In this document: positions 20,606 to 51,171 of the stretch, one piece after another
How the letters are laid out: every line of letters begins with the position of its first letter
How positions within the stretch are numbered: the stretch's first letter is position 1
DNA from: Magnolia sinica
Lineage: Eukaryota; Streptophyta; Magnoliopsida; Magnoliales; Magnoliaceae
DNA length: 64,000 nt
Assembly (NCBI RefSeq): GCF_029962835.1
Contig: NC_080582.1
Span: 15,074,032-15,138,031, forward strand
Direction: 5' to 3'
The notes under the pieces: generated by a model
Seen by the model: only the letters and a program-made list of their open reading frames with translations
Databases searched by the model: none
Told to the model about the DNA's origin: nothing
Position numbers and translations under genes: made by a program

Positions 20606-23600
20606 TCCCCCCTCAAACTCGAGATGATGAAGTCAACTTGAGTTTGGAAACAAGATCACGTAGTCGACTAGGTGGAAGAGACTTCGTGAAAATATCGGCA
20701 AGTTGATCCTTGGAGGAGATGGATTGAAGATGTAGTATACCCTGTTGGAGTTGGTGCCGAATAAAGTGGCAGTCAATCTCAATATGCTTGGTCCGCTCAT
20801 GAAAAACATAATTGTGAGCAATCTGAATGGTGCTCCAATTATCATAATAAAGAGGGGAACTAGTCGGCTGAGAGACATCCATGTCTGTTAAAAGCCATCG
20901 TAGCCACAAAAGTTCAGCTGTAGTATCAGCAAGTGCACGGTACTCAGCCTCAGTACTGGATCGGGCAACAACAGTCTGTTTCTTACTGCGCCAAGAAATG
21001 AGAGAAGTACCAAGTAAGAAACAATAACCCGTAGTGGAGCGACGATCAGTAAGATCACCGGCCCAGTCAGCATCAGAATAATAGCAGAGCTCTAGAGATG
21101 AGTGCGATGAAAAGTGAAGACCATGAAATAAAGTCCCCTTGACATAGCACAAGATACGAAGAACGACAGCATAGTGCGTAGAGCGTGGTGCACTCATAAA
21201 CTGGCTAACCAAGTGAATAACGTAGGAAATATCTGGGCGAGTAACTGTGAGATAGATGAGACTACCGATCAATTGCCTATACAGAGTAGTATCTAGAAGA
21301 GATTCACCGTCAGTAGCAAGAAGCTTAACATTATATTCAAGAGGAGAGGTGCACGTTTTGCTATCAGTCAAGCCTGCTTTAGGAAGCAAGTCAGAAGTAT
21401 ACTTAGCCTGAGATAAATAATAATCATCTGAATCAGAAGTCACCTCAAGACCAAGGAAGTAATTAAGCTGCCCTGAGTCCTTCATCTCAAAATTCTGACT
21501 CAGAAAATGCTGAAGATGTCGAATACCAGAGAGATCATCTCCTATAATGATCATGTCATTAACATAAAGAAGAATAAGAATAGTACCAGCACCAGTAGTC
21601 CGGAGAAACAGTGCAGAGTTATATGCACTAGAGACAAAGCCCTATTGAGCAACAACAAAACTAAATTTGACAAACCAGGCTCGAGGGGCCTGTTTGAGAC
21701 CATAATGAGCACGACGAAGACGACAAACTTTGTGAGGAAGATAATCATAGCCAGGTGGAGGATGCATATAAACTTCTTTAGTAAGATCACCATTCAAGAA
21801 GGCATTTTTCACATCCATCTGAAAAAGTTGCCAATGACGCACAGCAGCTACTACAAGTAAAGATCTAACAGAGGTAAGTCGAGCAACAGGAGCAAAAGTC
21901 TCCTCATAGTAAATACCATACTCTTGAGAGAAACCCTTCACAACAAGGCGAGCTTTGTATCGTTCCACTGATCCATCTGCCCGAGTCTTGATTTTGTAAA
22001 CCCACTTACAACCAACTGCAGACTTTTCGAAAGACAAATCTACCAGGTCCCAAGTATGAGTTTTGGTAAGAGTATCTAGTTTATTAGACATAGCTTTCTG
22101 TCAAAGAGGGTCAGTACTAGCCTCACGATAAGTGTGAGGTTCATGAAGAGTAGCAAACGCATAAAAACAATGATAGTCTTGAAGATGAGAAGGAGGGGCT
22201 CTTACTCTAGTGGAGTGACGAAGTGCAGGTACCTGGACAGGCTTAGGGGCAGTTGATGTAGCAGGAGGATCAGCAGACGTGTCAGTTGGATCAGGAGCAG
22301 CCGTAGAAGGAACGTCTGAGGAGCTTAGCATCTCTGTAGAGGAGTCAGGTACTAGAGCAATAGATGGATCAGTAAAAATAGGAGCATAACTGGAAAAGGA
22401 CTGTGGAAAAGGAGAATGACTCGTAAACATCTTATGTTCCCAAAACTCCACATGACGAGAAAGATGAAGATATTTGGCTATGAGATCATAACAACAATAA
22501 CCTTTCTGAGTGAGACCATAACCAAGAAGGCAACAGAATCTGAATCGTGGTTCAAGTTTGGTGCGTTCATGTGTAGGAAGAGTGACAAAACAGACACAAC
22601 CAAAAACTCAAAGCAAGGAATAGTTAGGAACTGTACTATGGAGAAGCTAAAAAAGAATTTTATTGTAGATGGTGGGTGAGGGAACACGATTGATAGTGTA
22701 GACAGCAGTGAGAGCAGCTTCACCCCAAAAGCGTTTTGGAAGAGAAGCAAAGACAAGAAGTGCTCTTACCGTATCTAGAATATGACGATGTTTACGTTAT
22801 ACTCAACCATTCTGTTGAGAGGTGTAAGGACAAGAATGATGAGAGACTATTCCATTTTGTTGTAAAAAGGGAAGAAAAGATTTATCTTTGTATTCCATAG
22901 CATTATCTGAACGAAAAGTTTTAATGATATAAGAAAATTGAGTTTGTACCATTTTGAAAAATTTATGGTAAACATTTATGAGTTTAGACCGATACCGTAA
23001 AAGATAAATCCAAGTATAACGACTGTAATCATTTTCAAAGATAACAAAATATCGAGATACCCCTCAATTGGAATCGGGGCGGGACCCTAAATATCATAAT
23101 AGACTAAGTCAAAAGGTGCAGAAGAAAAAGATTCACTTTTATTAAAGGGCAAATATGTCTGTTTTTCAAGACGACACGAAATACAATCAAATGACTGAAA
23201 ATTAACTGATCTTAGATGACCTTGAGAGGCCAAGAACTGGACGCGTGGAAGCGAGACATGACCCAAGCGGGAGTGCCATAAACTGGAAGTGACGGTGACA
23301 GCAGCCATGGAAGTGGTTGTTGAAGAAGGAAGCTGCAGATATGAGAGCTCGAAAAGACGTCCAACTTTATGGCTTGTCCCAAGTAGCTGACCTGTCTGTG
23401 AATCCTGTACATCAACACCCTTGCGAGAGAATTTCAGTTCAAGACCTAATTCACGTAGTTGTCCAATGGAAAGAAGGTTTAAAGATAACTTAGGAACAAA
23501 GTAAGTATCACCAACAGATAAATTAGAGGTAGAAATAGACCCTATATGACTAACAGACATATGAGAACCATCGGCAGTGTATATGGTAGGATTGGGAGAG

Positions 23601-25176
23601 AGAGTAGTTTTATGGTAGAAGATGGTGGAATCAGATGTTATGTGATTACAGCAGGCAGAGTCTATAAACCACTGAGATTTACCTGGGGTGACGGACATGA
23701 CAGTTGAGGATTGGGACAAAACCTAGTGAATTAAGTCCTTCACGTCAGTTGTAGTAAGAGAAGTGGACTGAGGTGGAGTCTCAAGTACAGGAGGATCAAA
23801 TGAAGCAACCGTAGCTATCTGCTGGGAAGTTCTTTTCTGCTTATAATACTAAAACTTGTGGCATTCATCGATGGTATGACCATTTCGTTTACACCACTTG
23901 CAAAAACCAGGCTTGGAGGTGGATTGAGAGGAAGAACGTCCAGCAGAAGACTGTGAAGTACCATGAGAAATGGTGGTCATAACCATGTCAGAAGATTGCA
24001 TCTTCATATTGGAACGTCGAGTTTCTTCAGAGATGAGTTCAGCAACTGCAGCATCTAATGTTGGAAGTAGCTGACGGTGAAGAAGAGAAGCTCGAGTAGA
24101 TTTAAAATCATCTTGAAGAGCCATCATGAAGTTCATAAACTTCTGTCAATCAAGCCAACTGCAAACGTTTGAATGTCTTTAGAACATTCCAACGTAGGGT
24201 CTGCGGCAGATAATTGTTCCCAAAGATGATTAGTTTGAGAATAAAAATTAGCAATAGACTGACTTGGGTCTTGACGCATTTGATAGAGTTTAGCTTCCAG
24301 TTGAAACTCCAATGAAGCATCATAGGTGCAGTTGTATCGTTTTGCCAGAAAGTCCCAAGCAACTTTAGCATTCCCAAGTCATGGAAGAAGACTATTGATG
24401 GATGGAACGGAAGTGTTGATGAGCCAAGACAAAATTTTGTAGTGAATACTGTCCCACTCTTTTTGACGAGATGTAAAGGCATCTTCTTTCTCACCATCAT
24501 TCTACATTGGTTGAGGGACTGCTCCAGTCACATAACACCATAATCGACGTCCTTTTAAAAAGACTTCCATATTCTGAGCCCACAGACTATAATTGGATTA
24601 ATCCAATATAAGATCAATAGGACGGACAATTGAATCAAGACTTGAGGCAGATTGAGACATATTGAAGGTGGCGTAAGCGGTAGATGACATGGCGTGAGAT
24701 GGCTAGGGCTGGCGTGTCACGTGCGGAATGAGACACATGGCAGATGTAACACAGCTGGTGCGTGCAATTGAAGGCTGGAGAGTGAGGCACGTGGGCGGCA
24801 CTCTTAGAGATGTTGTCGGTGCGTGGGGGTAAGTGCGGCGTCTGAATTGGCTGTTCTCGGCGGGGTTGAGCTCGTCAGTGAATGAGCTTGCCAACTGTGG
24901 TATCACCATGGTGAAACACCTGCTGGAACGGTGCGTAGTGGAAATTGGCCGAGAAGGAGGGTGGCGCGTGGTGGCGCGTGAGGCGGAGATAAGTAGAGAT
25001 CTTTCACGGGAGGAAAGTCCCGTACCTTACGAATCTGTTTCTGGACTTAAAGTTTCAGATCGGACTGCAAAAAGGCGGAAAAGAACTCCAAATAGCCACT
25101 ACCTTCACAAAGAGAGAGCATTGAAAATTCGCCAGAAAAAAAAATTATAGGCCACAAGAACCTGGCTTTGATACCA

Positions 25177-30723: not shown

Positions 30724-30878
30724 CTCTCTATCTACATATGATTTCTGGTCAGCATATATGGACGGTGAGAGATTCTTGGTGCATAATCTCTTGTGTATCA
30801 ACTGCAACACGTGTCATGCTATTTAATTTTTTTTAAAACAAAACGGTCTGATTTTTTGAAACTTCCCTCCATAGAACC

Positions 30879-33107
30879 ATGTCATCTGTTTCAAACTACT
30901 ACTCTTCCCTCTTGAAATTCTACTTGGAATCCAAAAGCCAAATCCAAGCAAAGAAGCTCCATTGCCTCATAATCAAAACCCTCAAATCCCCAGAGACCTT
31001 CCTCTTCAACAACCTCATTAATGCGTACTCTAAATTCAACAATTTAAGCTACGCACACCATGTGTTTGATCAAATTCCCCAGCCAAACCTCTTCTCATGG
31101 AACACCCTCCTTTCTGCTTATTCGAAATCTGGACGCCTTTCTGAAATGGAAAAAATCTTCAAACGAATGCCCATTCGCGATGGTGTTTCTTGGAATTCCG
31201 TCATTTCGGGCTATGCCAATGATGGGTTGTACCATGATTCAGTAGAAGCATATAAACTGATGTTGGAGGATGGAGTAAGTCCAAATCGGATTACGTTCTC
31301 TACAGTGCTGATTTTGTCATCGGGTCAGTCTTGGATTCGATTGTGTAGGCAGGTTCATGGTCAGATAATGAAATTTGGGTTTGGTTCATATGTGCTTGTC
31401 GGAAGTCTGTTGATTGATATGTACTCAAAGGCCAGGGTTGTTGATGATGCTAAACGGGTTTTCGATGAAATGGATGCAAGAAATTTGGTTGTGTACAATA
31501 CCATGATCACGGGATTGTTCAGGTGCGGGATGGTTGAGGAATCAAAGCGTTTGTTTGGTGACATGCGGGAAAGGGATTCAATTTCATGGACAATAATGAT
31601 TACAGGATTTAAGCAAAATGGGTTTGATAAAGAAGCAATTGATGTCTTTAGAGAGATGAGATTGGAGGAAGTTCCAATCGATCAGTTTACATTTGGAAGC
31701 GTATTGACTGCTTGTGGTAGTCTTCTGGCATTGGAACAAGGCAAGCAGATTCATGCTTATATAATCAGGACTGATTATAAGGATAACATCTTTGTGGGTA
31801 GTGCTCTTGTTGACATGTATGCCAAGTGCAGAAGCATAAGAATGGCGGAAACAGTTTTTAAGGGCATGGCACTGAAGAACATTGTGTCATGGACAGCTAT
31901 GCTTGTGGGTTACGGTCAAAACGGATTCAGCGAAGAAGCTGTTAGAAGTTTCTGCGAAATGCAGAGAAATGGGATCGAGCCTGATGATTTTACCCTTGGG
32001 AGCGTGATCAGCTCTTGTGCTAATCTGGCAAGCTTGGAAGAAGGTGCTCAATTCCACTGCCGTGCCTTAGTTTCCAGCTTGACTTCATTTAGTACAGTGT
32101 CTAATGCGATTGTTACATTGTATGGAAAATGTGGGTGCATTGAAGATTCGCATAAGATGTTTGATGAAATGCAGGTTAAAGATCAAGTCTCATGGACTGC
32201 ATTGGTTTCAGGGTACTCTCAGTTTGGAAAAGCCAAGGAGTCGATAGATCTGTTTGAAGGAATGTTGGCTGAAGGGCTGAAACCAGATGGAGTCACGTTC
32301 ATTGGCGTTATTTCAGCTTGTAGTAGAGCAGGGCTAGTGGAAAAAGGGCATCAATATTTTAATTCTATGGTAGAAGATCATCAAATCATCCCCACAGATG
32401 ATCACTATGCTTGCATGATTGATCTTCTCAGCCGAGCAGGAAGAATAAAAGAGGCAGAAGATTTTATTAAGCAAATGCCTTGTCAGCCCGATGCTATTGG
32501 GTGGGCCACCTTGTTAAGCTCATGTAGAGTACATGGTAACATGGAAATCGGGAAGTGGGCTGCCGAATCACTACTTGAATTGGATCCACACAACCCTGCG
32601 AGTTATATCTTGCTTTCGAGTATCTATGCTGCCAAAGGAAGATGGGACGACGTGTCCCGTTTGAGAAGAGGGATGAGAATTAAAGGCGTGAAGAAAGAGC
32701 CTGGTTATAGTTGGATCAAGTACAAGAACAAGGTGCATATATTTTCAGCTGATGACAGATCAAGCATTTATTCCAATCAGATATATGCAGAGCTAGAAAG
32801 GCTTAATTGTAAGATGATAGAGGAAGGCTATGTGCCTGATATGAATTCCATTCTCCATGATGTAGACGAGTCACAGAAGATAGAGATGCTTAGCCACCAC
32901 AGCGAGAAGCTTGCAATTGCATTTGGGTTGCTTTTCATACCTGAGAGATTGCCCATTCGAGTAGTAAAGAATCTACGTGTGTGTGTAGATTGTCACAATG
33001 CCACCAAGTTCATTTCTAAGGTTGTTGGGCGAGAGATACTTGTAAGAGACGCCGTCCGATTCCATCTATTTAGAAATGGGACATGTTCTTGTGGAGATTT
33101 CTGGTGA
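30879..33107 (+). CDS. PLS-class pentatricopeptide repeat protein with DYW domain, At1g68930-like
   Basis: A single intronless frame of 742 residues. About residues 35-540 are tandem PPR motifs of alternating P, L and S types, for example LFSWNTLLSAYSKSGRLSEM, VSWTAMLVGYGQNGFSEEAV and DGVTFIGVISACSRAGLVE. E and E+ segments follow (about 545-640, including GYSWIK), then a C-terminal DYW domain. The domain has the cytidine-deaminase signature His674-Ser-Glu676 and Cys702-Val-Asp-Cys705, a second metal site Cys736-Ser-Cys738, and the terminal tripeptide DFW, an accepted variant of DYW. Proteins of this class act in mitochondria or plastids as site-specific C-to-U RNA editing factors; which organelle cannot be decided by eye. 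Wording throughout, including PETFLFNN and SGYSQFG, is close to what I recall of At1g68930. The full domain set, lack of interruptions and normal length suggest an intact gene. Confidence 0.95.
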   Translation: MSSVSNYYSSLLKFYLESKSQIQAKKLHCLIIKTLKSPETFLFNNLINAYSKFNNLSYAHHVFDQIPQPNLFSWNTLLSAYSKSGRLSEMEKIFKRMPIRDGVSWNSVISGYANDGLYHDSVEAYKLMLEDGVSPNRITFSTVLILSSGQSWIRLCRQVHGQIMKFGFGSYVLVGSLLIDMYSKARVVDDAKRVFDEMDARNLVVYNTMITGLFRCGMVEESKRLFGDMRERDSISWTIMITGFKQNGFDKEAIDVFREMRLEEVPIDQFTFGSVLTACGSLLALEQGKQIHAYIIRTDYKDNIFVGSALVDMYAKCRSIRMAETVFKGMALKNIVSWTAMLVGYGQNGFSEEAVRSFCEMQRNGIEPDDFTLGSVISSCANLASLEEGAQFHCRALVSSLTSFSTVSNAIVTLYGKCGCIEDSHKMFDEMQVKDQVSWTALVSGYSQFGKAKESIDLFEGMLAEGLKPDGVTFIGVISACSRAGLVEKGHQYFNSMVEDHQIIPTDDHYACMIDLLSRAGRIKEAEDFIKQMPCQPDAIGWATLLSSCRVHGNMEIGKWAAESLLELDPHNPASYILLSSIYAAKGRWDDVSRLRRGMRIKGVKKEPGYSWIKYKNKVHIFSADDRSSIYSNQIYAELERLNCKMIEEGYVPDMNSILHDVDESQKIEMLSHHSEKLAIAFGLLFIPERLPIRVVKNLRVCVDCHNATKFISKVVGREILVRDAVRFHLFRNGTCSCGDFW

Positions 33108-33453: not shown

Positions 33454-33458
33454 GTAGG

Positions 33459-34677
33459 TGATGGGGACATCACGCGCACATGCGCACTCATGCCGCCACC
33501 CCTACGCACGTACGTGCGTAGATGGAGGACCCCACCATCGATCTGCCTCGATGACGACGTCCAGGGAGGGCCTCCTAGATAGATGACAAGTTTTGGTTCA
33601 GAAAAGTGGCCCAATAGTCAAGAAAAGCCCACCATGGGATCTCATGATCGTGGCCCACTCGTCGGATTGGTTTTATATTTTAAGTTTTGCTTATTGTTAT
33701 TATTTAGAACATCGTGAACGCTTTAGATTTTGTTGTTTGGTTTTTATTTTAGTTTATTTCATCGCCAAGTAATAGGTGTCGCACATGGTGCGAGTTTTTG
33801 GGTATAGGGTTCTCCCTATAAATAGGCACCTTTTGTAGTTCTTTTGATTCATTGAAGTTAATAAAAAATTCCTGCTTTATTTTTCTGCTCTCTTCGTGAG
33901 TTGTGGAAGAATTCAAAAGTGGGTGCGAAGCCCTCCCTTTTCGAAGGGCTAACTACCGTGGTGCGAAGCCACATCGATCCCAATTCACCCCCATCTTCCA
34001 TCATCTTTTTTTTCCATCTTCCCCCACCATCCGTACTTCGAATTTGTCCTTCTGTTGCATCAGATTTCTTCATTGAAGCAGGTTTCCAGATTTCGGCCCA
34101 CAGGCGAGCTAAAACTTCGGCGGAGCACCACGCACAAACCGTACATCGGATCGAGCTGAAATTTGGAGGTTTTGGAGTCCATCCCTGGCCGACCAGGGTC
34201 AAGGTGGCCTTTTTCTGAATAGTGGGCCCCACACACGTGCGGCCGGGATCACGCGCACGTCCGTCTGGGCCATTGTTGCTGTCCACACGCGGGATCATCT
34301 TTTGGTTTAGGTTTTTATCCTCTTTTATCCTCTCATAGCCGTTTTTTTCATGAATTAACCCTAGATTACATGATCCCTAATTGATTTGCCCCTTTCTATC
34401 ACCTTAGGGTTCCTTGAATTGAAATTAGGAAATCTCTTGGATTAGGGACTGATTTTTTTATGCATGAGTAGTTGATTTTATTTCCTTTTGACATCGTTTG
34501 GTTTCTAATTTTTATTGGTCCAGTCCTAGCCTGTGTCGGCTTGGACCCGCATAGATTCCCCTTTAATTGAATGTTTGGATTTTCATGTGGGATGTGGAAT
34601 TTGCGTGATTGTTTCTGAATTGGTGTGATCTAAGCCTGAAATCTTGCATATCATATTTAAATTCACGTCCTGCATCA
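33459..34677 (+). repeat. 5' LTR of the chromovirus
   Basis: It begins TGATGGGGACATC and ends in CA. It includes CTATAAATAGGC near 33820, a plausible TATA box for the element's own promoter, and AATAAAAAATTCC nearby as a possible poly(A) signal. Confidence 0.94.
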
Positions 34678-35905
34678 AATTTGGTATCAGAGCCTAGGGT
34701 TCTTGTAGGGGAATTCACCACATATTTAGGGTTTAGTTTGTTTGAGTCCTTCATGCATTCAGTCCATCATATATAGCTGAATTTTAGTAACAGTGTGTAG
34801 TCTCCTTCATATAGAGTCTCGTAGGGTCATTTAATTTTTAGACGCATATAGTTGTCATAGAAGGTCTTTAGGTTGAGCAAGTCAGTGTATGCCCACACGT
34901 ACGGGTCGCGATTTCGGTTTGCACCCTACACTAAACATGGAACAATTGCAAGAGTCACTAAACAAGATATCTCAGACATTGGAGTCTATGATTAAGCGCT
35001 TGAAAATGGACCAATGCTGTGAACAGCTTGATGTACGCATTACCCGACTAAAGACCATCGCTAGGACAAACCCCACCATTGGGGTAGATGTCCAATCTCA
35101 AGCAGGTGGCCGGGAGGATACACCAATGAATGAAGTTGGTCAAGGAATCAATTATGGGTGTGCACCCAGACACCCACCCCATGAGAGATATAAAGACCAC
35201 TATTTTGAGGGGTACAACATGTGTGGCCTTGTGGCTGGAGAGAGTGTATCAACGGCTAGTGTAGAGTTACCCACTGAGGCTATTCCGGTAATGGATGAGT
35301 TACGTGATATCTTTTCTGATGATCTACCGGATGAGTCCCCTAGGAAGGATATAGAGCACACCAGAATATGGGACATCGTAATACCTACAACCGAGTTCAC
35401 GTTGAATAAGTTTGTCGATAGGTCCACAGGTTTAAGTCCTTGTGAAGTCGTTACTGATTATAAACCTAGGAAACTTATTGATCTTGTCCCTATGTCACTG
35501 TCCCATAGGCCGTCAGAGTCTGCAGAGTCTTTTGCGCATCACATTCATTCATGGCATCAAGAAATCAAGCAGAAGATCATGGCTAATAATGAACATTGCA
35601 CGTTTTATACAGACCAGTATAAATGTTTCAAAGGATTCAATATTGGGGACTCTGTGATGGTCTGCATCAGGCCCGAGCGGTATCCTTCGAGGGCCGTTCG
35701 TAAGTTACACGCGTGTAGCGCTGGACCCGTTAAAATTATAAAACGAAACGGTCTCAATGTGTATGAGATAGATCTTCCACCTTTCATGGGAATTAGTTTC
35801 ACATCCGATGTGGAGGATTTAGTTACTTTTCAGAGGACCACTGATACTTTGTCCGGCCTTTCGCCCACCCATCCTGATTCCTCATATTTATCCCTTGAAC
35901 CATGA

Positions 35906-36250
35906 CCCCTTCCCAACCCATTTTCCCAACCTCTACCTCCCATATCTACTTTTCCTAACCTTTCTTCACAGCCTCTACCTCCCATACCTACCCTTCTCGA
36001 CCCATTTTTCCAGCCTCTACATCCCATACCTACCCGTCCCAACCCATTTTTCCAGCCTCTACCTCCCATATCTATCCTTCCTAACCCATTTTTTCAGCCT
36101 CTACGTCCCATACCTACCCGTCCCAACCCATGTTCCCAGCCTCTACTTCCCATACTTACCCATCCCGACCCATCTTCCCAGCCTCTACCTCCCATACCTA
36201 TCATTCCCGACTCATTTTCCCAGCCTCTATCTCCCATACCTAACCTTCAC
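35906..36250 (+). repeat. 42-bp minisatellite inside the chromovirus
   Basis: About eight units containing CAGCCTCTACCTCCCATACC followed by a CCCAACCCATTTTTC-type spacer, with period 42 (for example 35969, 36011, 36053). A multiple of three keeps any reading frame open: the unit encodes a 14-residue proline-rich repeat in one frame. Long open frames on both strands here come from the repeat. Confidence 0.85.
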
Positions 36251-36465
36251 ATACCCAAAAAGGAAATAGAGGATATCCAGGACCATCAGATAGTTTCAAC
36301 GTCGGACGGCGGGTTTCAGAAGTACGTGGTTAAATGGAAGTTAAGCCCAGCTTCAGGCAGCACGTGGCTCACTGAGGAGGAGCTTCAGAGACTTGATCCT
36401 GACATCCTGAAGCGGTTCAGGAGTTTTATTTCTCCAGTGGCGAAATCTTTGCAGCCGGGGAGAAT

Positions 36466-37682
36466 TGATGGGGACATCACGCGCACATGCGCACTCATGC
36501 CGCCACCCCTACGCACGTACGTGCGTAGATGGAGGACCCCACCATCGATCTGCCTCGATGACGACGTCCAGGGAGGGCCTCCTAGATAGATGACAAGTTT
36601 TGGTTCAGAAAAGTGGCCCGATAGTCAAGAAAAGCCCACCATGGGATCTCATGATCGTAGCCCACTCGTCGGATTGGTTTTATATTTTAAGTTTTGCTTA
36701 TTGTTATTATTTAGAACATCGTGAACGCTTTAGATTTTCTTGTTTGGTTTTTATTTTAGTTTACTTCATCGCCAAGTAATAGGTGTCGCACATGGTGCGA
36801 GTTTTTGGGTATAGGGTTCTCCCTATAAATAGGCACCTTTTGTAGTTCTTTTGATTCATTGAAGTTAATAAAAAATTCCTGCTTTATTTTTCTGCTCTCT
36901 TCGTGAGTTGTGGAAGAATTCAAAAGTGGGTGCGAAGCCCTCCCTTTTCGAAGGGCTAACTACCGTGGTGCGAAGCCACATCGATCCCAATTCACCCCCA
37001 TCTTCCATCATCTTTTTTTCATCTTCCCCCACCATCCGTACTTCGAATTTGTCCTTTTGTTGCATCAGATTTCTTCATTGAAGCAGGTTTCCAGATTTCG
37101 GCCCGCAGGCGAGCTAAAACTTCGGCGGAGCACCACGCACAAACCGTACATCGGATCGAGCTGAAATTTGGAGGTTTTGGAGTCCATCCCTGGCCGACCA
37201 GGGTCAAGGTGGCCTTTTTCTGAATAGTGGGCCCCACACACGTGCGGCCGGGATCACGCGCACGTCCGTCTGGGCCATTGTTGCTGTCCACACGCGGGAT
37301 CATCTTTTGGCTTAGGTTTTTATCCTCTTTTATCCTCTCATAGCCGTTTTTTTCATCAATTAACCCTAGATTACATGATCCCTAATTGATTTGCCCCTTT
37401 CTATCACCTTAGGGTTCCTTGAATTGAAATTAGGAAATCTCTTGGATTAGGGACTGATTTTTTTATGCATGAGTAGTTGATTTTATTTCCTTTTGACATC
37501 GTTTGGTTTCTAATTTTTATTGGTCCAGTCCTAGCCTGTGTCGGCTTGGACCCGCATAGATTCCCCTTTAATTGAATGTTTGGATTTTCATGTGGGATGT
37601 GGAATTTGCGTGATTGTTTCTGAATTGGTGTGATCTAAGCCTGAAATCTTGCATATCATATTTAAATTCACGTCCTGCTTCA
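36466..37682 (+). repeat. 3' LTR of the chromovirus
   Basis: Nearly identical to 33459-34677, with about nine substitutions and one short indel in a T-rich run by eye. It ends next to the GTAGG target duplication. Confidence 0.94.
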
Positions 37683-37687
37683 GTAGG

Positions 37688-49562: not shown

Positions 49563-50381
49563 CTAACGCTTCCGATTGGATTGGACTTCGCGAGCAATGA
49601 ATTGTGTGGCTGGATCGAGTTGTTTACACATAGTGAGATATGCAAGATACAACACCCGATCCTTCGCGCCCGTTCGATGGTTATTTGTGTGCTTGCAGAA
49701 GTACTTCAACTGATTCAAAGTGCAACATCCCATCATCTTCCCCAAAAACAAAAACAGCCAATTGATCGACCGTTTCTTCGGTGAGATCACCGGCTTTATG
49801 CAATTGGTCTGATGGCACATCTGGCAATCAGGTAGCTTTGGGTTCATCCACTCCTTCGGGGCCCGGTCGAACATCGCGTCGATGTTAGCAGTAATATAAG
49901 ATCTGATCTCCTTGAACTTGCTCTCCAAGTCATGCTCTATCTGGTACTTAGCCTCACACCTCCTGCATTTCATGTCACCCTTGATAGCAGTAATACCGGC
50001 CGAGATGAGGTAGCTGAGGGTGTGTACCATGGCGCGGCGGTCAGTCGCCCATTCGAAAGGCGCCGGCACACGATCATGCTTCTTTACACGTGGAGTTCTC
50101 ATTGGATTACGTTGTGGGCGTGTCGATGGTGGTCGACCCTTTCGATCATGTTGGCCGACCCCGATGGGTGGTGTGGATCGTCCATCAGCTGCTACAGGGG
50201 CTGGCAGTTGGTAGGGCCCAGAAGAGGAAAGGGAGAGATCGAGCTGAAGATTGGCTTCATCATAGTGCTTTTCAAGAGGTTTTGGGTTTTGAGTCTGTTT
50301 TCCCTTTCTTTTTCTTTCGGACCTAGTTTCAACAGCTTCCATGTCTTGCACTGAATTCTGACTTCTCGTCTTGCATGGCAT
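49563..50381 (-). CDS. DUF7086-type uncharacterised plant protein with EAR-like motif
   Basis: An intronless frame of 272 residues. The N-terminal third is basic and low in complexity (SERKRKGKQ, residues 21-29; RKGRPPSTRPQRNP, 80-93), which suggests nuclear location. Residues 45-51 read LQLDLSL, an LxLxL EAR repression motif. From about residue 108 comes the conserved domain: PFEWATDRRAMVH, a Cys139-x2-Cys142 pair, the helix KYQIEHDLESKF, then WMNPKLPDCQMCHQTNC (Cys186, Cys189, Cys194), the block KKRSINWLFLFLG followed by CC (219-220), and LKYFCKHTNNHRTGAKDRVL. I recognise this as the plant DUF7086 family. The cysteines suggest zinc binding. No biochemical function is known to me; the EAR motif makes a role in transcriptional repression plausible but unproven. 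The ATG is the first of the frame and the length is typical. Confidence 0.9.
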   Translation of the reverse strand: MPCKTRSQNSVQDMEAVETRSERKRKGKQTQNPKPLEKHYDEANLQLDLSLSSSGPYQLPAPVAADGRSTPPIGVGQHDRKGRPPSTRPQRNPMRTPRVKKHDRVPAPFEWATDRRAMVHTLSYLISAGITAIKGDMKCRRCEAKYQIEHDLESKFKEIRSYITANIDAMFDRAPKEWMNPKLPDCQMCHQTNCIKPVISPKKRSINWLFLFLGKMMGCCTLNQLKYFCKHTNNHRTGAKDRVLYLAYLTMCKQLDPATQFIAREVQSNRKR

Positions 50382-51171
50382 ACATATTTACGTAGAGATT
50401 TTGTACGTACACATGCATGAATGGTCGTGCACATCTATATGCTAGTGTATATGATACATAGCATATATTTGCAAGATCCAAGCCGTCCATCAGGTAGCCC
50501 ACAACATATAAAAACTATACCATATCAGATTAGCCAACTCATCAAGTTAGCCATAGTTGAAACAAATGGTTGTATAGATTCAGCTTTTTCCAACCATTTA
50601 TTTGTTTTATAAACTGTGATACACGTTGTAGGTAAACCTGCCCTATTTTTTTTTCCTGGAAAATCTACACTATGTCCCACTTCATGAACTGGTTGGAAAT
50701 TACACACGGTTAACATTGGCACACACGTGCAATGGCTTATACACGGAGTTATTACGTATGTGTGATTATTTTTGGTCTTTGTTATTTCAATTTTGCTTAA
50801 TTATAGAACCATAAAACCGAAAAATCATAGGGTTATCTTTTTATTTTACACGTGGAAGATGATATATGATTTTGGTTGTGATTTATGATTTAGACAGTCC
50901 ATCTAACTATTCTTATTGGTAGAGTACACAAGTAATTAACGATTCAATGTTAAGTTCAAAAAAAGAACAAAAATGGGATATATTTTTATCTAGTAGATTC
51001 CATTTTTAAGAGAAGAGTAATCGTTGATAGGTCCCACTAGCTGAACGGACACGATTGATAGATAACCATGTCATATGCTCTGTATAGAGATGACTCTCTA
51101 CCGTGTTACGCTTCTTCCCGCCTCCACCGTATCATTTGGGAAGCTCAAATTCGGATGGAGCGGTCGTGAAG
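50382..51171 (-). other. Upstream region of the DUF7086 gene
   Basis: Presumed promoter and leader for the minus-strand gene. TATATGATACATAGCATATATT near 50446-50469 is AT-rich and could supply a TATA element. Nothing else is recognised up to the first fold-back MITE. Confidence 0.4.

What the first reader, a model, noticed from the sequence alone, without database searches (positions are those of the whole stretch)
33459..37682. Very young chromovirus that lacks its polymerase yet keeps a long open frame
Near-identical 1.2-kb LTRs, a clean GTAGG target duplication and intact primer and purine sites show recent movement. The 1.8-kb interior has no reverse transcriptase or integrase core. A 338-codon frame still joins gag-like and integrase-C-terminal-like sequence, followed by chromodomain-like sequence. 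That suggests a non-autonomous family spreading with a partner's enzymes, possibly with a selected short protein.
Basis: partly seen in the sequence, partly recalled or inferred. Interest (0 to 1): 0.7.

Follow-up and report, generated by a model that had tools for sequence, protein, structure and literature searches.

The report
Polymerase-less retrotransposon family, frame open
This is one copy of a large family of shortened jumping genes that lack their own copying enzymes, yet whose source copies seem to keep one long reading frame open, which raises the question of what that frame is for.

Summary
At 33459-37682 lies an LTR element with 1219/1217-nt LTRs (9 substitutions), a GTAGG duplication, primer site, purine tract, and a 1788-nt interior without reverse transcriptase or integrase core. 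It is not an accident: a 38-nt string across its main deletion junction occurs 450 times in the 1.84-Gb genome (control 0), and 59 of 60 loci cut from two overlapping interior searches keep the short arrangement at least up to the repeats. The '338-codon frame' is a broken piece: in 13 of 29 aligned copies one frame of 501-571 codons runs from a gag-position segment through the integrase C-terminal domain, proline-rich 42-nt repeats and a chromodomain. Sister copies down to 77% alike share the junction. Among variants carried by six or more of 69 loci, stop gains are 1 of 157 in the real frame against 20 of 320 in the other two, and 0 of 3 indels shift the frame; yet nonsynonymous changes are not reduced. 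So the frame, but not visibly its residues, seems kept. No full-length partner with these LTRs was found; that search stayed incomplete. Ordinary in kind (non-autonomous LTR family), unusual in what it retains.

The parts
33454..33458 (.). target-site duplication GTAGG, left
33459..34677 (+). 5' LTR, 1219 nt, TG...CA
   Evidence: 9 substitutions and one 2-nt gap to the 3' LTR
34682..34694 (+). primer binding site (initiator-Met tRNA type; the tRNA assignment is recalled, not tested)
   Evidence: LTR-end plus primer-site string found 574 times in the genome
34695..34936 (+). leader; replaced by a longer, repeat-bearing leader in sister subfamilies
34937..35905 (+). first part of the long frame in this copy (322 codons from ATG, then a stop that interrupts it)
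34937..35340 (+). N-terminal segment in gag position; no gag profile match; its 3' limit and the RT-entry remnant after it are placed by recall of the family, not by a profile
35348..35385 (+). 38-nt string taken across the main deletion junction (RT, RNase H and integrase core absent); exact breakpoint not known without a full-length relative
   Evidence: 450 places at 3 or fewer mismatches, reversed control 0
35363..35782 (+). integrase C-terminal part; SH3_Tf2-1 domain at 35645-35803
   Evidence: E 3.2e-9; Ty3 7q5b, E 2.2e-5
35907..36257 (+). 42-nt tandem repeats, 8.3 copies, coding a proline-rich linker; interiors of L012, L015, L020, L030 and L035 differ from 1788 nt by multiples of 42
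36263..36421 (+). chromodomain
   Evidence: PF00385, E 1.9e-7
36457..36464 (+). purine tract before the 3' LTR
36466..37682 (+). 3' LTR, 1217 nt
37683..37687 (.). target-site duplication GTAGG, right

Best explanation
It is a young copy of an older, large, diversified non-autonomous Ty3/chromovirus-type family. An ancestor lost reverse transcriptase, RNase H and the integrase core by deletion; what was left, a gag-position segment, the integrase C-terminal SH3 domain, a proline-rich repeat linker and a chromodomain, stayed in one frame. RNA copies are presumably packaged, reverse transcribed and integrated by enzymes of a pol-bearing element (inferred). Copies that became sources mostly kept the long frame open (supported statistically), either because the protein gives the RNA or particle some loosely specified help (for instance a chromodomain-bearing, non-catalytic subunit) or because being translated to the end protects the RNA (both inferred). 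This window copy carries one in-frame stop.
For: Family: 450 junctions; short arrangement at least up to the repeats in 59 of 60 loci; the match of L031 ends at 35688; 42 of 46 islands with two LTRs, interiors 1532-1984 nt. Retrotransposition: 5-bp duplications in 3 of 4 elements printed; the fourth lies inside a tandem array, its right 'flank' being the next unit's primer site. Missing domains. Diversification around the same junction: (segments 77-97% alike; 18 of 20 copies picked through the junction keep the flanking segments at least in part). Frame kept: stop gains among variants in 6 or more copies 1/157 in frame, 9/160 and 11/160 in the other frames (p 0.003); indels in 6 or more of 69 loci 0 frameshifting and 3 in frame, against 8 and 0 in the LTRs of 44 copies (p 0.006, different copy sets). 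Long open frames with the integrase C-terminal domain exist elsewhere in the genome.
Against: No partner with these LTR ends and primer site was found. N:S is not lowered in shared variants (123:33 against 250:100 in singletons) and omega is 0.9 or more in 24 of 36 comparisons (range 0.35-1.84), so a protein with conserved residues is not supported. Rarer shared variants show no such depletion: stops 14/323 and indels 5 frameshifting to 1 in frame in those of 2-5 copies. Variants are linked by descent and recombination, so the p-values are optimistic; the six-copy cut was mine.
Confidence: 0.75

Rival explanations
1. Passive cargo: the frame is only a relic. Copies are young enough, and come from few source copies, that an open frame survives by chance; nothing is selected but LTRs, primer site and purine tract.
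For: N:S is near neutral level; 16 of 29 aligned copies, the window's own included, have a stop or a frameshifting gap (in one of them, L020, the two gaps add up to 42 nt and 515 codons stay open); stops and frameshifts are common in rare variants.
Against: Stops and frameshifts are scarce among widely shared variants while the other two frames and the LTRs show none of this. Between subfamilies 4 indels stand against 290 substitutions in the coding segments, 73 against 301 in LTRs (these comparisons share the window copy).
Confidence: 0.35
2. The protein works as a real component, a semi-autonomous element: N-terminal segment plus integrase C-terminal domain plus chromodomain joins the partner's particle or integration complex and steers insertion.
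For: Both recognisable regions are held, at least in part, in 29 of 30 loci and 18 of 20; frame kept. A Gag-giving non-autonomous partner is proposed for RLG_Quinta (PMC11302176, passages).
Against: No residue constraint seen in either domain: omega 1.78 over the RT-remnant plus integrase part and 1.11 over the chromodomain for L075 against L021 (one chromodomain comparison, L076 against L021, is 0.35 on 11 changes). No expression data.
Confidence: 0.25
3. A single accidental deletion, copied once or not at all.
For: None found.
Against: 450 junction copies with control 0; 42 two-LTR elements of this build.
Confidence: 0.01

Closest known systems
RLG_Quinta with RLG_Cereba (einkorn wheat), PMC11302176, passages seen
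   Same: Shorter non-autonomous Ty3 family with one frame and no RT or integrase, long-lived, beside a pol-bearing relative.
   Different: Quinta encodes a clear GAG and an unknown domain and its partner is named; here no GAG profile matches, the kept domains are the integrase C-terminus and chromodomain, and no partner was identified.
RLG_Beth with RLG_Ava (oat), PMC13270711, passages seen
   Same: Non-autonomous family encoding a large protein without the transposition enzymes.
   Different: Beth's protein is described as of unknown function; here the frame holds recognisable Gag-Pol tail domains.
TR-GAG elements, PMC8704663, passages seen
   Same: Two LTRs, one frame, no pol; movement in ddm1 reported there for one such element.
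   Different: TR-GAGs keep a GAG frame; here GAG is at most a fragment.
Non-autonomous centromeric elements of Coffea, PMC5818461, passages seen
   Same: Non-autonomous derivatives of chromoviruses.
   Different: [quoted passage not shown] here the chromodomain is kept.
RLG_Sabrina variants (wheat), PMC9744471, passages seen
   Same: High-copy variants lacking RT and integrase, some with short proteins.
   Different: There the GAG-Pro region of the shorter variants is replaced by different sequence; here it is an internally deleted Gag-Pol.

Membership tests
Non-autonomous LTR retrotransposon family | Two LTRs, primer site, purine tract, target duplication | tested here: met
Non-autonomous LTR retrotransposon family | Many copies lacking the same enzymes | tested here: met
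   for the window copy; for copies with the same junction and length
Non-autonomous LTR retrotransposon family | An autonomous partner with matching LTR ends, primer site and purine tract (criteria as in PMC11302176, passages) | tested here: inconclusive
   none found; of 9 exact primer-site matches the window, C6:104086099 (junction 743 nt downstream) and C2:25938784 are short, 6 were not examined; the protein query did not complete
Chromovirus (Ty3) | Chromodomain at the integrase C-terminus | tested here: met
   SH3_Tf2-1 and Chromo in one frame, split by one stop in this copy
Chromovirus (Ty3) | RT phylogeny | not testable with these tools
   RT is absent from the element
TR-GAG | Single frame encoding a GAG protein | tested here: not met
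   no gag profile listed up to E 1
LARD / TRIM | No coding region (as described in PMC5818461, passages); interior sizes recalled | tested here: not met
   a coding frame of 501-571 codons is open in 13 of 29 copies

The most novel reading that the evidence does not exclude
The frame is selected for being open and not for what it spells: source copies need to be translated to the end (for RNA stability or packaging), while the residues, even of a chromodomain and an integrase C-terminal domain, drift freely over 15-20% divergence.
Probability: 0.25. Interest if true: 0.7.

Novelty: new variant of a known kind. Interest (0 to 1): 0.48.

Why it matters
Non-autonomous LTR families are well known in plants; those I met in the papers keep GAG, an unknown protein or nothing. 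One that keeps a gag-position segment fused to the integrase tail and chromodomain, in hundreds of copies and several subfamilies, is a natural test of whether a targeting module without catalysis is useful, and of whether translation itself, not its product, can be what keeps a retrotransposon RNA going.

Tried and rejected
Partner search. (1) Looking at loci of the best-scored LTR and interior matches: one solo LTR (L008), otherwise short elements or, for L031 and L061, pieces of them. (2) Exact primer-site matches lacking a 0- or 1-mismatch short junction downstream: the one looked into, C2:25938784, is another short element with an interior of about 2.1 kb. (3) PF24626 in the genome: only places and frame lengths came back. 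(4) A protein query with a less derived integrase tail (L081) was asked fifteen times and never answered. A DNA query from L071, meant for more sister copies, was asked seven times and never answered.

Structure prediction of the window protein was not taken up. Single accidental deletion: rejected. Gag identity by profile: no match. One search failed on a wrong frame and was replaced. One search read too few files and printed nothing; one search replaced it. One search used too strict a string (6 loci) and was replaced. One search stopped with an error after two of three segments (omega 0.89-1.67 there) and was not repeated; one search covers the question. Positive selection on the frame: considered because N:S among widely shared variants is higher in the real frame than in the other two (123:33 against 184:106, p 0.0009); not claimed, since CpG decay in arginine codons could do the same (not tested). 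only waited, and and waited after their tests.

Full report
What is there. The element at 33459-37682 has LTRs of 1219 and 1217 nt that differ at 9 positions (6 transitions) and by one 2-nt gap, GTAGG on both sides, a primer site four bases inside the 5' LTR and a purine run before the 3' LTR. The 1788-nt interior carries one frame whose first part is 342 codons stop to stop, 322 from an ATG. Pfam sees the SH3_Tf2-1 integrase C-terminal domain there and a chromodomain further on in the same frame, and no RT, RNase H or integrase core; Ty3 Gag-Pol matches the same stretch. About eight 42-nt repeats coding a proline-rich linker lie between. No gag profile matches; I call the first 134 codons 'gag-position' for that reason. 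That the few codons before the junction are the entry to the RT is recalled knowledge, not a call.

It is a family. In the 1.84-Gb genome that holds the window, LTR and interior queries give 3831, 1854 and 2221 unscored first-look candidates; the 40 scored in each are 96-100% alike. A 38-nt string across the deletion junction occurs 450 times with up to 3 mismatches, its reversed control 0 times. Thirty loci were cut from each interior search. Of the first 30, 29 match the window element through to the 3' LTR and the match of L031 ends at 35688. Of the second 30, which overlap the first, all 30 join the first segment to the integrase tail and 29 hold at least part of the chromodomain; L061 does not. 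Merged by place, these and the eight LTR loci are 46 islands; 42 show two LTRs, with interiors of 1532-1984 nt. Dropping five with fewer than 200 aligned LTR positions leaves 37, with LTR distances of 0 to 0.048; the window's is 0.0074, and the largest comes from a tandem array and is not a true pair. With the rate of 1.3e-8 quoted in PMC5818461 (passages) the window's value is about 0.3 million years; a slower clock would make it more. One search printed four elements with both sides of the outer LTRs held: three have 5-bp duplications (GTAGG, GCCTT, TATGT), the fourth lies inside the tandem array.

It is old and branched. L071 and L072, picked through the junction, have LTRs 77-93% alike to the window's and a different, repeat-bearing leader. 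Twenty further copies, taken from the two-mismatch rows on contigs 1 and 2, are 77-96% alike in the first segment; 18 of 20 hold all three segments at least in part, L084 and L089 do not. Since they were picked through the junction, only what flanks it is news. L070 and L081 look like mosaics of subfamilies.

The real frame is longer than the finding says. Of 29 copies aligned (30 loci less L031), 13 have neither stop nor frameshift from the ATG to the 3' end, with frames of 501-571 codons counted stop to stop within the interior; a fourteenth, L020, has two gaps that add up to 42 nt. The window copy has one stop, at 35903-35905. L075, 80% and 86% alike to the window in the first two segments and with its own LTRs only 90% alike, still has 527 open codons.

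Is the frame selected? Residues: no sign. NG86 dN/dS is 0.68 within the main subfamily, 0.71 within the second and 0.94 between them, and 0.77 and 1.30 for L070 against 44 copies in two segments. Corrected for transitions, L075 against L021 gives 1.09, 1.78, 0.89 and 1.11 for the four parts; over nine pairs of copies and four parts, 24 of 36 values are 0.9 or more, the proline-rich part is 0.72-0.94 in all nine, and one chromodomain value is 0.35 on 11 changes. N:S is 250:100 in singletons, 89:56 in variants of two copies, 107:57 in those of 3-5, 123:33 in those of 6 or more. Openness: yes, in the oldest class. Stop gains are 14/364 in singletons, 14/323 in variants of 2-5 copies and 1/157 in those of 6 or more; in the other two frames the last class gives 9/160 and 11/160 (1/157 against 20/320, p 0.003; against all rarer in-frame classes p 0.03). 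Indels: singletons 64 frameshifting and 13 in frame, 2-5 copies 5 and 1, 6 or more copies 0 and 3 (last against first p 0.007); in the LTRs of 44 copies the last class is 8 and 0 (p 0.006), though in the 45 matching islands alone no coding indel reaches six copies, so the three come from the wider set. Sixty-nine loci entered, one of them (L008, a solo LTR) without coding sequence. The tests treat variants as independent, which they are not, and the depletion appears only in the most widely shared class.

How it works, step by step. Shown: LTRs, primer site, target duplications, multicopy spread, missing enzymes. Supported: kept frame. Inferred: enzymes come from a pol-bearing relative. The genome holds 21971 unscored candidates for the integrase C-terminal domain; of 150 scored, open frames reach 1564 codons, but I could not read their other domains and none was tied to these LTRs. 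The LTR-end plus primer-site string occurs 574 times against 450 for the junction at the same tolerance, which leaves limited room for a large full-length family with exactly these ends; of its 9 exact places, the window, C6:104086099 and C2:25938784 are judged short and 6 were not examined.

Comparison with print. Five papers were seen in passages only: PMC11302176, PMC13270711, PMC8704663, PMC5818461, PMC9744471. Searches for a non-autonomous family that keeps integrase tail and chromodomain (listings and starts of abstracts) showed me nothing that states one; they cover an open-licence library only, and one search listed 20 of 23 papers. I file it as a new variant of non-autonomous LTR families. 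It works like RLG_Quinta or a TR-GAG in depending on others, but is not a TR-GAG because no GAG is recognised.

Noticed in passing
genome contig C8:12264531-12273489 (loci L016, L025, L054): Four copies of the short junction spaced 2967, 2971 and 2983 nt apart on one strand: a tandem array of LTR plus interior units, probably from unequal recombination.
   Followed up: partly
window 30852-33107: A long PPR-DYW frame (PPR repeats, E motif, DYW deaminase) ends about 350 nt before the insertion, so the element sits just downstream of a gene.
   Followed up: no
window 20613-23722, minus strand: Copia-type remnants: RVT_2, gag_pre-integrs and Pol_BBD matches in separate frames.
   Followed up: no
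window 49566-50387, minus strand: Frame with a full DUF7086 domain (E 7e-65), function unknown.
   Followed up: no
leaders of L070, L071, L072 (e.g. L072:683-1172): The sister subfamilies have a longer leader with internal repeats spaced about 80-280 nt, with no match to the window's leader beyond its first 102 nt.
   Followed up: no
69 loci, codons 1-309 and chromodomain: Widely shared variants are more often nonsynonymous in the real frame than in the other frames (123:33 against 184:106); CpG decay or positive selection, not resolved.
   Followed up: partly
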